Positions 36,359 through 57,040 of a DNA stretch of 64,000 bases are shown here, in pieces. The position numbers and the translations under genes are program-made. The stretch is taken from positions 186,001 through 250,000 of the forward strand of contig UEGQ01000008.1 of assembly GCA_900466005.1 (NCBI GenBank), read 5' to 3'. Numbering within the stretch: the stretch's first letter is position 1; every line of letters starts with the position of its first letter. A model generated the notes under the pieces. The model saw nothing but the letters and a program-made list of their open reading frames with translations, did no database searches and had not been told where the DNA came from. Source of the stretch: Hyphomicrobiales bacterium. GTDB taxonomy: Bacteria; Pseudomonadota; Alphaproteobacteria; Rhizobiales; Rhizobiaceae.

Positions 36359-37855
36359 ATGAACGACGCTGTGCGCAAGATCACGCCCCCCCAGCAGGCC
36401 GAGCCGCTCTATCGCGAAGCGCCGAACAACATCGAGGCCGAACAGGCGCTTCTCGGCGCCATTCTGGTCAACAACGACGCCTATTACCGCGTCTCGGACT
36501 TCCTGAAGCCCGTCCATCTCTACGAGCCGCTGCACCGCAAGATCTTTGAGGTCGCCTCGGAGATCATCCGCATGGGCAAGACGGCGAACCCCGTCACCAT
36601 CAAGACCTTCCTGCCGGCCGAGGAGAAGGTCGGCGACCTGACGGTCGCGCAGTATCTCGCCCGCCTCGCCTCCGAGGCGGTGACGATCATCAATGCGGAG
36701 GACTACGGCCGCGCGATCTACGATCTGGCGCTGCGCCGCGCGCTGATCCAGATCGGCGAGGATGTCGTCAACATCGCCTACGACGCGCCGCTCGACATGC
36801 CGCCGCAGGCGCAGATCGAGGACACCGAACGCCGCCTTTTCGAACTCGCCGAGAACGGCCGTTACGACGGCGGCTTCCAGGCCTTCAGCGACGCGGTGGC
36901 GCTGGCGGTCGACATGGCGGGCGCCGCCTTCGAACGCGACGGCAATCTTTCCGGCATTTCGACCGGCATCCATTCGCTCGACTCGAAGATGGGTGGCTTG
37001 CAGCGCTCCGACTTGATCATCCTCGCCGGCCGTCCTGGCATGGGCAAGACGTCGCTTGCGACGAACATCGCCTGGAACATTGCGGCGTCCTACGAGCCCG
37101 AGGTCATGCCTGACGGTTCCTTCAAGGCCAGGAACGGCGGCGTCGTCGGCTTCTATTCGCTCGAAATGTCGTCCGAACAGCTCGCCACCCGTATCATGTC
37201 GGAGCAGACGGAGGTCTCGTCCTCGAAGATCCGCCGCGGCGACATCACCGAGCAGGACTTCGAGAAGCTCGTCGGTTTCTCCCAGACCATGCAGAAGGTG
37301 CCGCTCTACATCGACCAGACCGGCGGCATCTCGATCGCACAGCTCGCCGCACGCGCCCGCCGCCTGAAGCGCCAGCGTGGCCTCGACTGCCTCGTGGTCG
37401 ACTACGTGCAGCTGATGACCGGCTCCAAGAAGGCCGGCGAGAACCGTGTGCAGGAAATCACCGAGATCACCACGGGGCTCAAGGCACTCGGCAAGGAACT
37501 CAACGTGCCGATCATCGCGCTCTCGCAGCTCTCCCGTCAGGTCGAAAGCCGCGACGACAAGCGCCCGCAGCTCTCCGACCTGCGTGAATCGGGCTCGATC
37601 GAACAGGATGCGGACGTCGTGCTCTTCGTGTTCCGCGAGGAGTACTATGTGAAGAACATGGAGCCGCGCGACCCCGCCGACCCGAAATACGCCGAATGGG
37701 AAGCGCAGATGGACAAGGTCAAGGGCACCGCCGACGTCATCATCGCCAAGCAGCGTCACGGGCCGACCGGCACCGTCAAGCTCGCCTTCCAGGCCGAATA
37801 CACCCGCTTCGCGGACCTCGCGGACCCGAGCTTCACGCAATACGAGGAGCACTGA
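36359..37855 (+). CDS. dnaB: Replicative DNA helicase DnaB
   Basis: Hexameric 5'-3' helicase at the replication fork. It has 498 residues: an N-terminal helical domain (PNNIEAEQALLGAILVNNDAYY), a linker, and a RecA-like core with Walker A GRPGMGKTS near 224-232, Walker B CLVVDYVQLM, and the conserved LSQLSRQVESRDDKRPQLSDLRESGSIEQDAD region. No intein is present. In related genomes alr usually follows dnaB; here almost 7 kb of other genes intervene. Confidence 0.97.
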   Translation: MNDAVRKITPPQQAEPLYREAPNNIEAEQALLGAILVNNDAYYRVSDFLKPVHLYEPLHRKIFEVASEIIRMGKTANPVTIKTFLPAEEKVGDLTVAQYLARLASEAVTIINAEDYGRAIYDLALRRALIQIGEDVVNIAYDAPLDMPPQAQIEDTERRLFELAENGRYDGGFQAFSDAVALAVDMAGAAFERDGNLSGISTGIHSLDSKMGGLQRSDLIILAGRPGMGKTSLATNIAWNIAASYEPEVMPDGSFKARNGGVVGFYSLEMSSEQLATRIMSEQTEVSSSKIRRGDITEQDFEKLVGFSQTMQKVPLYIDQTGGISIAQLAARARRLKRQRGLDCLVVDYVQLMTGSKKAGENRVQEITEITTGLKALGKELNVPIIALSQLSRQVESRDDKRPQLSDLRESGSIEQDADVVLFVFREEYYVKNMEPRDPADPKYAEWEAQMDKVKGTADVIIAKQRHGPTGTVKLAFQAEYTRFADLADPSFTQYEEH

Positions 37856-38013
37856 GCGGGAGCCGCATGCCCATCTTTTGACCATCGAAGGCCTGCATCT
37901 GCTTCTGCCGATAGCAGGCTTTCGGAGACTCTGGACATTGCAGGCGCGCGCTCGCAGGAAGCACCGGGGTTTGCCTTGTGTGACGGCGACTTGGGTGTCG
38001 CAAGAGGAATTCG

Positions 38014-38415
38014 ATGCGCTTCGTCAATCCTATCCCTTTCGTCCGCGACATCGGCCTTTCCAAGGCCTTCTACCAAGATATACTCGGCCTGAGCGTACTG
38101 GAGGATTTTGGGAGTTTCGTGCTCTTCGAAACGGGCTTTGCGATACACGAGGGGCAGTCGCTCGAGCAGACGGTCTGGCGCGAAGCAACGACTTCGCAAG
38201 AACCTTATGGCCGGAGAAATCTACTATTGTATTTTGAGCATGAAGACGTTGAGGCGGCTTTCGCAAAAATCGGGCCTCGTGTGAAACTAATACATCCCGT
38301 TGAGCGGCAGGCATGGGGACAACGCGTGTTCCGGTTCTATGATCCCGATGGGCATGCAATAGAAATCGGGGAACCACAGAACCCCGGTTGTCCGGAGAAT
38401 TTCGACAACTCGTAA
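38014..38415 (+). CDS. VOC-family (glyoxalase/bleomycin-resistance fold) protein, lower GC
   Basis: A 133-residue vicinal-oxygen-chelate protein with two beta-alpha-beta-beta-beta modules: FVNPIPFVRDIGLSKAFYQDILGLSV and, at the end, RVFRFYDPDGHAIEIGEP, which carries the typical metal-ligand glutamate. Substrate unknown; relatives bind small hydrophobic compounds or antibiotics, or act as lyases. An AAGAGGAA ribosome site precedes the ATG. Hand counts of two 60-base lines give 47% and 53% GC, well below neighbouring genes, suggesting recent acquisition. It is the first gene of the dnaB-alr accessory stretch. Confidence 0.85.
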   Translation: MRFVNPIPFVRDIGLSKAFYQDILGLSVLEDFGSFVLFETGFAIHEGQSLEQTVWREATTSQEPYGRRNLLLYFEHEDVEAAFAKIGPRVKLIHPVERQAWGQRVFRFYDPDGHAIEIGEPQNPGCPENFDNS

Positions 38416-38452
38416 GCGTTCGGGCCGCTGTCCCTTGCAGTTTCTTTGGAAC

Positions 38453-38468
38453 TGGCACGCGGATTGCT
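38453..38468 (+). promoter_or_regulatory. Sigma-54 (RpoN) promoter of the amino-acid ABC transporter
   Basis: TGGCACG (38453-38459), four bases, TTGCT (38464-38468) matches the -24/-12 consensus TGGCACG-N4-TTGCW exactly, with the invariant GG and GC dinucleotides 12 bases apart. Transcription would start near 38478, 23 bases before the binding-protein ATG at 38501. Control by an enhancer-binding activator such as NtrC is expected; I found no clear activator site. Confidence 0.85.
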
Positions 38469-38472
38469 CCTG

Positions 38473-38490
38473 CTGTTCCAGATAGAACAG
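38473..38490. promoter_or_regulatory. Inverted repeat at the transporter transcription start
   Basis: CTGTTC (38473-38478) and GAACAG (38485-38490) are perfect inverted repeats separated by CAGATA. They overlap the predicted start of the sigma-54 transcript and lie ten bases before the ATG. It could be a repressor site or a leader hairpin near the GGGAG ribosome site at 38490-38494. Confidence 0.45.
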
Positions 38491-38500
38491 GGAGCATTAC

Positions 38501-39298
38501 ATGCAACGCAGAACCTTCATGACACGTGCCTTCGCCGCCGCAGCCGTCGTGGCGGCCACTCTCGCCGGACCGCTTCCGGCCTTGGCCGACGCGCTGGAAA
38601 GCATCAAATCCAGCGGCAAGCTGCGTGTCGCCGTACCGCAGGATTTCCCACCCTTCGGCAGCGTCGGCGCAGACATGGCACCAAAGGGCTACGATATCGA
38701 CATGGCGACGCTGATCGCGGGCAAGCTCGGCGTTGAGGTCGAAATCGTTCCAGTGACCAGCGCCAACCGCATCCCCTATCTGCAAACCAACAAGGTCGAT
38801 CTGGTCATATCGAGCCTTGGCAAGAATGCCGAGCGCGAGGCGGTGATCGATTTTTCCGCGGCTTACGCCCCCTTCTACAACGGCGTCTTCGCCCCTGCGG
38901 GCCTGGAGATCACATCGGCCGCCGATCTCGCCGGCAAAACCATCGGCGTGACCCGCGGCGCCATCGAGGATCTCGAACTGACGAAGGTCGCGCCGCAAGA
39001 CGCCACCATCAAGCGCTACGAGGACAATAACGGCACGATCTCCGCCTTCCTTTCCGGGCAGGTCGAGGCGGTAGCGACCGGCAACGTGGTCGCCGCCGCA
39101 ATTCTCGAGAAGAACCCGCCGAAGCGGCCGGAACCCAAGTTCCTCATCAAGAACTCGCCCTGCTATGTGGGCCTCAACAAGAACGAACCCGCCCTGCTCA
39201 AGGAAGTCAACGGCATCATCGCCGCTGCCAAGGCGGACGGCTCGCTGAACACGATTGCCGAGAAGTGGCTCGGCACGTCTCTGCCGGCAGATCTCTGA
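38501..39298 (+). CDS. Amino-acid ABC transporter substrate-binding protein
   Basis: A periplasmic solute receptor of the polar amino-acid family (SBP family 3), 265 residues. The signal peptide has a twin-arginine-like RRTFM start (MQRRTFMTRAF) and a likely cleavage after ALA near residue 30. The mature protein begins DALESIKSSGKLRVAVPQDFPPFG, with PKGYDIDMATLIAGKLGVEVEIVPV, the family motif. The exact ligand is not readable. It is driven by a sigma-54 promoter and followed 26 bases later by two permease genes. Confidence 0.92.
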   Translation: MQRRTFMTRAFAAAAVVAATLAGPLPALADALESIKSSGKLRVAVPQDFPPFGSVGADMAPKGYDIDMATLIAGKLGVEVEIVPVTSANRIPYLQTNKVDLVISSLGKNAEREAVIDFSAAYAPFYNGVFAPAGLEITSAADLAGKTIGVTRGAIEDLELTKVAPQDATIKRYEDNNGTISAFLSGQVEAVATGNVVAAAILEKNPPKRPEPKFLIKNSPCYVGLNKNEPALLKEVNGIIAAAKADGSLNTIAEKWLGTSLPADL

Positions 39299-52676: not shown

Positions 52677-54449
52677 ATGGCGGGCAGCCTCAAGCTTTAC
52701 AACACACTGACGCGCGAGAAGGTCGATTTCGAGCCGATCGACCCGACGAACGTGCGCATGTATGTCTGCGGCCCCACCGTCTACGACTTCGCCCATATCG
52801 GCAATGCGCGGCCGGTGATCGTCTTCGACGTGCTCTACCGGCTGCTCCGCCATATCTACGGCGAAGACCACGTGACATACGTGCGCAACATCACCGACGT
52901 CGACGACAAGATCAATGCGCGTGCGCTTCGCGATTTCGGCGCCCGGATCGCCGACGGCTCAATGAGCCTCAACGAGGCGATCCGTGCGGTCACGGAAAAG
53001 ACCGAGAGCCAGTTCCACAAGGATGTGGCGGCGCTCGGCACGCTGCCGCCCAATGTCGAGCCGCGGGCGACCGACAACATCCCGCAGATGATCGAGATCA
53101 TCCAGAGGCTGCTCGACGCCGGCCACGCCTATGTGGCGACGGGTGCCGAGGGCCAGGAGGTGCTGTTCTCCACCGCCTCGATGCCGGATTACGGCAAGCT
53201 TTCCAAGCGCAAGCTGGAGGACCAGCAGGCGGGCGCGCGCATCGCCGTCGAGGCGCACAAGCGCAACCCGGCCGATTTCGTGCTCTGGAAGGAATCGGCC
53301 GCAACCGAGCCCGGCTGGGCCGCCACCTTCACCGTTACCGGCAGCGCCGTCTCGATCTACGGCCGTCCCGGCTGGCACATCGAATGCTCGGCAATGTCCG
53401 ACCGCTATCTCTGGCAGGAGGCCCGCAACCGGCTGTCGCCGAAGGGCAAGGCGAAACCGCATCAGTTCGACATCCACGGCGGCGGGCTCGACCTCATCTT
53501 CCCCCACCACGAGAACGAGATCGCCCAGTCCTGCTGCGCCTACAACACGCATGTGATGGCGAATGTCTGGATGCACAACGGCTTCCTGCAGGTCGAAGGC
53601 CGCAAGATGTCGAAGTCGGAGGGCAACTTCGTCACCATCCACGAGTTGCTGGCTGGCACGTCCAGGAGGCCAATTTCGGGTGAAGTGATTCGCCTAACCA
53701 TGTTGGCGACACACTATCGCCAGCCCATTGATTTTAGCGAGGCCAAGCTAAACTATTGGAGGGACAAGCTTTCTGGATGGGTTAAGACATTTGCCAACCA
53801 CGCCGATGCCAGCTTTCAAAACGGTCTTTACGTCGGGCAATCCCCTGTCGCTCCATCTCCGGAAGTGGTGGCAGCGCTGTCCGACGACCTCAACTTTCAG
53901 GAAGCCATTGTCCATATCGACCATTTGGCGCAACAAGCCGCCGGGAATCCTAACGTCGCGAATGAGTTGGGTAGCAATCTTATCTGGCTTGGGCTTTTCC
54001 GAAGCTACCTCAAAGAAGCATATTTCGATGCGCGCATGCATAGCGCTCGTCCCCAACTGCTGAGCAAGTATGGGGAGACACTCGAGGACGCGCGCGCTTT
54101 AGTGCTTAATTACTATAATTGGGCTGGTGAGATTGACGCACGCAATCGCTCGCGAACTGAACTCAATGAGCTTTTCCAAACTCGTTTTCCTGAACTTGGG
54201 AGCGATCACGTCAAAGTCGTATTGCATGAGCACGGTGCCGTTACGCTGGAGGCGATCAGCGAAGAAAGCAAACTAGACGGAGGCGAGATCGACAGTATCG
54301 TTTCACGAAGGTTGGCGCTTATCAATGCCAAGAACTTCGCCGAGGCCGACAAGATCCGCGACGAACTCTTGGCCAAGGGCATCCAGCTCAAGGACGGCAA
54401 GGACCCCGTCACCGGCGAGCGGGTCACGACATGGGAGGTCAAGCGGTAA
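52677..54449 (+). CDS. cysS: Cysteinyl-tRNA synthetase with an enlarged, atypical C-terminal half
   Basis: Charges tRNA-Cys. The catalytic half is normal: C31 (zinc ligand region [10 protein letters not shown]), HIGN at 40-43, the WHIECSAMS and FPHHENE zinc ligands, and KMSKS at 310-314. From about residue 325 to 552 (bases about 53650-54330) GC falls to about 50%, codons such as TTA, AAT and TAT appear, and the protein gains roughly 120 residues in the region normally occupied by the short DALR/anticodon-side bundle. Native-looking sequence ([18 protein letters not shown] to the end) then resumes. Total 590 residues against about 460 usually. The frame is intact throughout. The start at 52677 has GGGAGACAGGA upstream. 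Confidence 0.9.
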
Positions 54450-54506: not shown

Positions 54507-54986
54507 ATGACTGACACGATCCATACCGGCGGATGCCAGTGCGGCGCGGTGCGCTTTCGCGTCCGCGGTGCGCTGAAGGACGCTTCGATCTGTCACTGCC
54601 GCATGTGCCAGAAGGCATTCGGCAGCTATTTCGCGCCGCTCGTCTCCGTGCGAGGCACGGATTTCGAATGGACCCGCGGGGCGCCGAAAAAATTCCGCTC
54701 GTCGAACTTCGTGCTGCGCGGCTTCTGCGGGGACTGCGGCACGCCGCTGACCTACGAGGCGCCGGACGGCATGGCGATCGCGGCCGGCGCCTTCGACGAT
54801 CCGGCCGCCGTGCCGCCTGCGGTCCAGTACGGCGTCGAGGCGAAGCTCGGCTTCTTCGACCATCTGCATGAGCTGCCGGAGCTTTCCACGCTGGACGATC
54901 TCGACAACGCGCCGTTCCTCGAAGAGATCGTCTCCTTTCAACACCCCGATCACGACACCGAAACATGGCCGGAGGTAAAGCCATGA
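54507..54986 (+). CDS. GFA-family zinc protein (glutathione-dependent formaldehyde-activating enzyme-like), copy 1
   Basis: A 159-residue protein of the GFA/centromere protein V family: cysteine motifs CQCGAV near residue 10, CHCRMCQ near 30 and CGDCGTP near 78 would bind zinc. Family members are named for Gfa, reported to act with glutathione on formaldehyde, but most are uncharacterised. The ATG at 54507 has GGGAGGA upstream. It begins 57 bases after cysS; its stop overlaps the next small gene by four bases (ATGA). Confidence 0.88.
   Translation: MTDTIHTGGCQCGAVRFRVRGALKDASICHCRMCQKAFGSYFAPLVSVRGTDFEWTRGAPKKFRSSNFVLRGFCGDCGTPLTYEAPDGMAIAAGAFDDPAAVPPAVQYGVEAKLGFFDHLHELPELSTLDDLDNAPFLEEIVSFQHPDHDTETWPEVKP

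Positions 54987-55119: not shown

Positions 55120-57040
<1,921 letters not shown>

What the first reader, a model, noticed from the sequence alone, without database searches (positions are those of the whole stretch)
53650..54330. cysS is a mosaic: a low-GC, foreign-codon segment replaces and enlarges its tRNA-binding half
Hand counts of 60-base lines inside the segment give about 47-53% GC, against 60-65% for the lines on either side. Rare codons (for example TTA) occur only here. The protein grows to 590 residues where CysRS is normally about 460; the excess is roughly 120 residues between the helical bundle and the conserved C-terminal [14 protein letters not shown] block, where native-like high-GC sequence resumes. 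The frame is open and the catalytic motifs are intact. This suggests gene conversion with a distant cysS or insertion of a new domain in an essential synthetase, altering tRNA-Cys recognition or conferring resistance.
Basis: partly seen in the sequence, partly recalled or inferred. Interest (0 to 1): 0.75.

Follow-up and report, generated by a model that had tools for sequence, protein, structure and literature searches.

The report
Cysteine tRNA-ligase with swapped tRNA-arm domain
The only cysteinyl-tRNA synthetase gene found in this bacterium carries a foreign, AT-rich middle piece where its tRNA-arm domain should be, and about a quarter of the sampled species in its genus show similar, mostly independent swaps at nearly the same place.

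Summary
In cysS (52677-54449, 590 aa) codons 326-550 (53652-54326) have GC 0.523 against 0.640 in the rest, and GC3 0.56 against about 0.9; both edges are sharp against a close relative's native gene. It is the only cysS found in the genome.

It is not a one-off. Of 63 genus genomes, 16 carry a low-GC replacement here and 47 the native 461-494 aa form. The 16 fall into 13 sequence types and need 14 changes on a tree of the native 5' half. In 12 the right edge lies near the start of, or inside, the native C-terminal domain. In four, one with the window's own type, the foreign 3' half ends in its own tail and a displaced native tail follows. The window looks like the resolved form of that state. 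Low-GC segments also occur in 22 other genera.

tRNA-Cys is unchanged, so altered tRNA identity is unlikely. Donor, carrier and cause are unknown. The extra residues form a predicted helix-helix-strand-strand module like the C-terminal domain; homology is unproven for the window.

The parts
52677..53651 (+). cysS 5' part, codons 1-325: native catalytic half with KMSKS (residues 310-314)
   Evidence: 93.4% nt identity to native G014 and 95.1% to G067 over the 5' half; PF01406 and TIGR00435 matches; GC3 0.892 for codons 1-324
53652..54326 (+). foreign low-GC segment, codons 326-550
   Evidence: GC 0.523 against 0.640 in the rest of the gene; GC3 0.562; among the 16 variant mids of the genus its only nucleotide matches at E 1e-3 are G030 (80.5% over 519) and G031 (67% over 152, 80% over 44); edges
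53739..54071 (+). foreign helical bundle (residues about 355-465), replacing the native one
   Evidence: helices 355-375, 378-385, 395-402, 407-420, 425-437, 442-465 in the AlphaFold model; aligned up to residue 449 with 1li5, Z 43.9; DALR_2 match below cut-off, E 0.069
54081..54254 (+). extra helix-helix-strand-strand module, residues 469-526, possibly a degenerate first copy of the C-terminal anticodon-binding domain
   Evidence: H469-485 H493-503 E512-516 E522-526, block pLDDT 63-79; helices then two strands again when folded alone, with one more short helix, pLDDT 72; no Pfam match; sequence homology not significant for the window's type
54327..54446 (+). native 3' end, codons 551-590 ([15 protein letters not shown]...)
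   Evidence: identity to G014 resumes at about 54327; last 45 codons nearest to G014 88% and G067 86%; GC3 0.929 for codons 549-590
54447..54449 (+). stop codon TAA; the sequence right after it resembles that of the relatives G014 and G067

Best explanation
cysS in this genus is repeatedly overwritten, between its catalytic half and its C-terminal anticodon-binding domain, by foreign CysRS 3' halves taken from an AT-rich pool of old, divergent alleles that circulates among Rhizobiaceae. Proposed path: (1) incoming DNA with a foreign cysS 3' half pairs with the host gene in the conserved stretch between KMSKS and KRLEEA; (2) its far end joins, by microhomology or illegitimate recombination, at the start of the native C-terminal domain, so the host expresses native catalytic half + foreign bundle + foreign tail, with the native tail displaced behind the foreign stop (state seen in G002, G030, G033, G035); (3) recombination or deletion between the two tail copies removes the foreign tail and stop, giving one reading frame with the native 3' end (window, G031, G067, G081, and fusions near the domain start in eight others). 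The product stays the sole CysRS and charges the same tRNA-Cys. Shown: mosaic structure, recurrence, edges, displaced tails, unchanged tRNA. Inferred: order of events, recombination type, pool, continued activity. Not known: what selects for it.
For: 16 of 63 genus genomes have a low-GC mid and 47 do not, without overlap in (mid GC minus 5'-half GC): -0.178 to -0.059 against -0.009 to +0.086. 14 changes on the 5'-half tree, at least 10 forced by starred branches; window type rejected as a clade. 13 mid types; between types no nucleotide match longer than 38 bases and only weak or short protein matches in the bundle. Left edge, read by eye, exactly at the end of KRLEEA in 7 of 16. Displaced native tail directly after the foreign stop in 4 of 16: aligned from the same codon in G002, G033 and G035; in G030, which carries the window's own type, by eye only, as frameshifts blur its first 17 codons. 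Mid under purifying selection, G000/G030 dN/dS 0.09. Same tRNA-Cys in native and variant forms. Window-type mids also in two other genera, G117 and G280, at about 42% aa. argS control shows no such split: 61 of 63 genomes over cut-off at 354-381 bits.
Against: No donor found: of 385 class genomes 3 match the window mid, the window itself and two at 34-36%; of 397 order genomes 30 match, the best besides the window 53% over 58 residues. Within the window's type the mids differ more than the 5' halves (G000/G031 0.70 against 0.81 nt), so this is not a fresh transfer between the sampled species. Repeated use of nearly the same right edge is hard to explain by chance joining. No displaced tail was seen behind 39 cysS genes from other genera (pattern search of up to 450 bases). 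G030 has frameshifts in both tails and is a fragmented draft.
Confidence: 0.55

Rival explanations
1. A site-specific integrative element (phage or island) uses cysS as its attachment site and carries a replacement 3' half that restores the gene; after the rest of the element is lost, only the new 3' half and sometimes the displaced native tail remain.
For: Same left edge (end of KRLEEA) in 7 of 16 and a similar right edge in most, with unrelated inserts; displaced native tails.
Against: Tail matches at E 1e-3 in 63 genus genomes lie only in or right beside cysS. Among 38 family genomes, separate tail pieces were seen in G229 and G245 (an assembly gap and an assembly overlap), at a contig edge in G163 (not looked at) and a weak match in G206 (not followed). 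No relative in viral contigs and no close one in phage records. Left edges upstream of KRLEEA in 9 of 16 do not fit a single crossover point. The foreign stop touches the native tail with no trace of an element. Downstream stretches were not scanned for integrases.
Confidence: 0.2
2. Diversifying selection: an antagonist (phage protein, toxin or competitor) acts on the helical bundle of CysRS or on tRNA-Cys bound to it, and foreign bundles are taken up because they escape; the swaps are transient.
For: Variants lie scattered on the tree as if the label were shuffled (14 changes, shuffled mean 14.5); divergent allele classes shared between genera; the exchanged part is mainly one structural domain; tRNA unchanged.
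Against: No antagonist known or found. A VapBC pair lies beside cysS in part of the genus but not more often with swapped forms (7 of 15 against 17 of 47, Fisher p 0.55).
Confidence: 0.2
3. No transfer: the helical bundle simply evolves fast in place and drifts to low GC.
For: Bundles are weakly conserved between CysRS types; low-GC mids are also seen in a number of Rhodobacteraceae.
Against: Genomes with 95-97% identical 5' halves have unrelated mids of different length and GC; edges are sharp; native mids stay high in GC in 47 of 63 genomes.
Confidence: 0.04
4. Assembly or binning artefact.
For: Two separate tail fragments in other genomes were assembly effects.
Against: The gene lies inside a 408-kb contig with native sequence on both sides; frame open; the same type is found in four other genomes.
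Confidence: 0.01

Closest known systems
Displacement of 3' ends in T6SS effector-immunity, Rhs and contact-dependent toxin loci (Kirchberger et al. 2017, PMC5361080; passages seen)
   Same: Constant 5' part, new 3' part of other origin placed at a conserved junction, old 3' pieces left as orphans downstream; homologous and homology-facilitated illegitimate recombination proposed there.
   Different: Those are toxin systems shaped by competition; here the gene is a sole housekeeping synthetase and the orphan, where present, is a tail of the enzyme, not an immunity gene.
Phage or island integration in protein genes with a replacement 3' end (icd with phage 21 and e14; recalled, no call)
   Same: The element carries a 3' end that restores the gene, giving a mosaic.
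   Different: No element found here; the exchanged piece is mainly an internal domain and a native 3' end is kept.
Bacterial CysRS, E. coli structures 1u0b and 1li5
   Same: Catalytic half and bundle align, Z 43.9; the E. coli C-terminal end aligns at 528-580 of the window protein, weakly on its own (i-E 0.13).
   Different: Extra module between bundle and C-terminal domain; E. coli CysRS has 461 residues.
Mosaic drug-target genes such as penicillin-binding proteins (recalled; one listing, PMC5404556)
   Same: Segments from other species inside an essential gene.
   Different: There, as recalled, the segments align with the native gene throughout; here they are unrelated at DNA level.

Membership tests
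Cysteinyl-tRNA synthetase (TIGR00435) | Match over the curated cut-off | tested here: met
   407.1 bits, cut-off 340; best stretch 5-422
Cysteinyl-tRNA synthetase (TIGR00435) | Class I catalytic domain with KMSKS and the family's invariant residues | tested here: met
   PF01406 E 9.7e-101; invariant columns including C31, H40, C237, H277, H278, K310, M311, K313, S314 in 42 aligned sequences
Cysteinyl-tRNA synthetase (TIGR00435) | Charges tRNA-Cys in the cell | not testable with these tools
   only cysS in the genome and one tRNA-Cys match; activity not measured
CysS_C anticodon-binding domain (PF23493) at the C terminus | Match over the gathering score | tested here: not met
   17.1 bits at 537-576, cut-off 23; a profile from the 47 native tails of the genus gives 92.5 bits at 538-590
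Tandem C-terminal domains (first copy at 469-526) | Homology of the extra module to the C-terminal domain | tested here: inconclusive
   hhalign E: window type 0.17-0.97; G063/G055/G035 set 1.9e-5 to 0.013; all six 0.0013-0.3; pairwise scores not above shuffles (window 475 of 1000 as high; best case G035 57 of 1000); module alone best Z 5.0, to an entry not a CysRS
Integrative element in cysS | Integrase or element genes at the junction, or a distant displaced 3' half | tested here: inconclusive
   no distant tail match in 63 genus genomes; downstream stretches compared with three query proteins only, not scanned for integrases
Displaced 3' end array (T6SS/Rhs-like) | Old 3' end directly downstream of the new one | tested here: not met
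   not in the window itself; present in 4 of 16 variants of the genus, including G030 of the window's type

The most novel reading that the evidence does not exclude
The CysRS helical bundle is a hypervariable, exchangeable cassette in Rhizobiaceae, kept in motion either by an unseen antagonist of CysRS/tRNA-Cys or by a selfish agent that overwrites the cysS 3' half with a recoded, self-restoring copy (a natural home-and-rescue system) and is then lost.
Probability: 0.2. Interest if true: 0.9.

Novelty: new variant of a known kind. Interest (0 to 1): 0.62.

Why it matters
Aminoacyl-tRNA synthetases are usually treated as slowly changing housekeeping enzymes, with tRNA-arm domains tuned to their tRNA. 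Here the same domain of one synthetase was replaced by unrelated sequence about 14 times among 63 species of one genus while the tRNA stayed the same. If true, the bundle tolerates wide exchange, and something makes exchange at this place frequent. The locus offers a natural set of chimeras, with near-identical native sisters as controls, to test what the bundle does and what selects for the swap. It also warns against using cysS as a phylogenetic marker in this family.

Tried and rejected
Prophage or plasmid source: tblastn against 50,697 phage records gave 7 weak hits for the window 3' half, 2 at about 30% for G002, none for G035; viral contigs gave none by two protein queries and two DNA patterns. 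Plasmids gave 53 records for the window 3' half, of which 20 were listed: Rhizobiaceae replicons at 50-57% and more distant ones in Klebsiella and Paracoccus; 5 Rhizobiaceae replicons for G035, tail only. Donor in the class or order: nothing close to the window mid.

Separate tail pieces in G245 and G229 looked like element ends; they are an assembly overlap and an assembly gap. Association with the neighbouring vapBC rejected. The idea that the extra module comes from Rhodobacteraceae CysRS was weakened: a profile of their tails finds only the native tail in the window. Searching the PDB with the extra module alone listed no CysRS, which excludes nothing.

Control limits: one control gene only (argS; profile scores in 63 genomes, DNA of 30). 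Its GC dips (-0.035 to -0.078) overlap part of the cysS variant range (-0.046 to -0.149), so the dip alone is not diagnostic; unrelated sequence and edges are. The family sample is not random: of 39 genes, 24 were chosen for split matches (23 of these low-GC at a cut of -0.04) and 15 otherwise (2 low-GC). GC-dip counts (19 of 78 usable loci at -0.05 or lower, of 80 fetched) do not show foreignness, and L050 among them is the same sequence as G018. Junctions and edge classes were read by eye. Literature: nothing on mosaic cysS in the listings; the library lacks most subscription papers. A likely relevant paper (Mageeney 2020) is not held; a later integrase paper (PMC12884075, term search only) does not mention cysS.

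Full report
What is there. cysS runs from 52677 to 54449 on the + strand and encodes 590 residues. It is the only cysS found in the genome. GC falls to 0.50-0.55 between 53600 and 54319; this is the lowest 600-bp stretch of the 64-kb window, 0.518 against a mean of 0.649 and sd of 0.030. GC3 is 0.892 for codons 1-324, 0.562 for 325-548 and 0.929 for 549-590. Aligned with the native gene of the nearest native-form relative, G014, identity breaks off at about 53652 and resumes at about 54327.

What the segment encodes. The AlphaFold model (mean pLDDT 87.9) aligns with E. coli CysRS 1li5 over residues 4-449 at Z 43.9. The replaced part holds the helical bundle (about 355-465) and then an extra helix-helix-strand-strand module at 469-526 with block pLDDT 63-79. 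The C-terminal domain at 535-588 has the same order of elements; its blocks from 541 on have pLDDT 87-97. The extra module may therefore be a degenerate first copy of the C-terminal domain. Sequence comparison supports this only for other variants (G063, G055, G035: hhalign E 1.9e-5 against Rhodobacteraceae tails, 0.013 against native tails), not for the window's type (E 0.17-0.97), and single pairwise scores do not exceed shuffles. The module folded alone found no strong structural match.

Recurrence in the genus. All 63 genomes held for the genus have cysS. In 47 the protein is 461-494 aa and the mid is about as GC-rich as the 5' half or richer; in 16 the mid is clearly poorer in GC, without overlap between the groups. 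The 16 mids fall into 13 types: the window's type is shared with G030 and G031, one type is shared by G070 and G077, the rest are single. Between types there is no nucleotide match longer than 38 bases at E 1e-3; weak protein matches in the bundle (mostly 26-48% over 24-122 residues, higher only over some 20) show that all are CysRS-like. The 5' halves are native. The window's is 95.1% identical to G067, which has a different foreign mid, and 93.4% to G014, which has the native one. On the maximum-likelihood tree of the 5' half (quick search) the variant label needs 14 changes, as many as shuffled labels (14.5), and at least 10 by starred branches; the window's type as one clade is rejected, p 1.9e-6. 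That tree is of part of one gene, not of the species.

Edges and displaced tails. Read by eye, the left edge lies exactly at the end of the KRLEEA codons in 7 of 16 variants and further upstream, back to just after KMSKS, in the other 9. The right edge lies within some ten codons of the start of the native C-terminal domain (SDDLSAAV) in 8, and deeper in that domain in 4, the window included. In the remaining 4 (G002, G030, G033, G035) the foreign 3' half keeps its own tail and stop, and the native tail follows directly. In G002, G033 and G035 it starts again at the same codon, so that the foreign stop overlaps a possible start codon, ATGA or GTGA, and the displaced tail is an intact frame of 61 codons with dN/dS of 0.03, 0.21 and 0.12 against its nearest native tail (native tails: median 0.10, 199 pairs). 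This cannot tell recent displacement from continued use. In G030 both the foreign tail and the start of the displaced tail are frameshifted; G030 is an 88% complete draft in 460 contigs. G030 carries the window's type in the displaced-tail state; the window and G031 carry it with a single native end. This suggests an order of events but does not prove it.

Beyond the genus. Of 39 cysS genes read from other genera of the family, 25 have a mid at least 0.04 poorer in GC than the 5' half, in 22 genera; the sample is biased, since 24 were chosen for split matches. The window's type recurs in G117 and G280 from two other genera at about 42% aa identity, with mids less alike (0.65 and 0.71 nt) than the 5' halves (0.82 and 0.75). 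The mids thus look like old allele classes rather than fresh copies. Low-GC mids also appear in a number of Rhodobacteraceae loci, where foreign origin was not tested.

tRNA. A pattern for tRNA-Cys matched in 62 of 63 genus genomes (G078, 86% complete, gave none); by sequence one match in each is a tRNA-Cys. In 43 genomes, all 16 variants among them, the gene was read in full with two bases before it. The window's string is identical in four other variants and nine native-form genomes; 15 of 16 variants share theirs with at least one native-form genome, and that of the sixteenth, G035, differs from a shared one only in the two bases before the tRNA (the tRNA start is set by the acceptor stem, my reading). 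A change of tRNA identity therefore does not explain the swap.

Control. argS, read by profile in the same 63 genomes, gives 354-381 bits in the 61 that pass its cut-off; of the other two, both fragmented drafts, G016 has it split over contigs and G004 shows no argS beyond a weak match elsewhere. This is one control gene. GC dips in argS overlap the weaker cysS variants, so the case rests on unrelated sequence and edges rather than on GC alone.

How it probably works. Incoming DNA with a foreign cysS 3' half recombines with the host gene in the conserved stretch between KMSKS and KRLEEA; the other end joins at the native C-terminal domain. Perhaps only cells that keep that domain, in frame or as a following small gene, persist. 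Later the two tails recombine and one is lost. The enzyme goes on charging the same tRNA. The mosaic nature, recurrence, edges and unchanged tRNA are shown; order, recombination type and continued activity are inferred; donor and cause are unknown. The closest described dynamic I found is the displacement of 3' ends in T6SS effector, Rhs and contact-dependent toxin loci, where orphan old pieces follow the new one (PMC5361080, passages seen). There the setting is competition between bacteria; whether something similar drives cysS is open.

Rivals. A cysS-specific integrative element would explain shared edges but no element or distant tail was found in the genus, and no close carrier in the phage and viral collections searched. 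Diversifying selection by an antagonist would explain the scatter over the tree and the domain-wise exchange but has no agent. In-place fast evolution and artefact are nearly excluded.

Noticed in passing
L031 (G002), L033 (G031) and others, downstream of cysS: A VapB-like (PF04014) and VapC PIN-domain (PF01850) pair follows cysS in 7 of 15 variant and 17 of 47 native-form genomes of the genus (some native stretches were short); not found within 3 kb downstream in the window. A pair whose relatives often cleave tRNA (recalled), beside a tRNA ligase, may be more than chance.
   Followed up: partly
window 54507-54986, 55120-55590, 55587-56084: Three consecutive genes with a repeated [17 protein letters not shown] motif (GFA-like; name recalled) follow cysS; relatives follow cysS in 61 of 63 genus genomes, the other two having under 650 bases downstream.
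   Followed up: no
L073-L114 (Rhodobacteraceae loci): Many CysRS of this family end in sequences like [28 protein letters not shown] instead of the usual tail, and several have mids 0.06-0.14 poorer in GC than the 5' half.
   Followed up: partly
L119 (gammaproteobacterial MAG): A 547-residue CysRS that may carry two C-terminal domains in tandem (weak first match at 433-451, i-E 0.06; second at 498-545).
   Followed up: no
plasmid records: Fifteen Klebsiella plasmid records match the window 3' half; those listed do so at about 27%, and some are annotated as cysS: plasmid-borne CysRS.
   Followed up: no
window 37801-38600: Second lowest GC region of the window (0.545 over 600 bp at 37921), spanning the end of a DnaB-like helicase ORF (36359-37855, name recalled) and a 133-aa ORF at 38014-38415.
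   Followed up: no
G206:C1:3331968-3332495 (within L193): A second weak match to the CysRS 3' half (37%) inside an open frame of 1164 aa.
   Followed up: no
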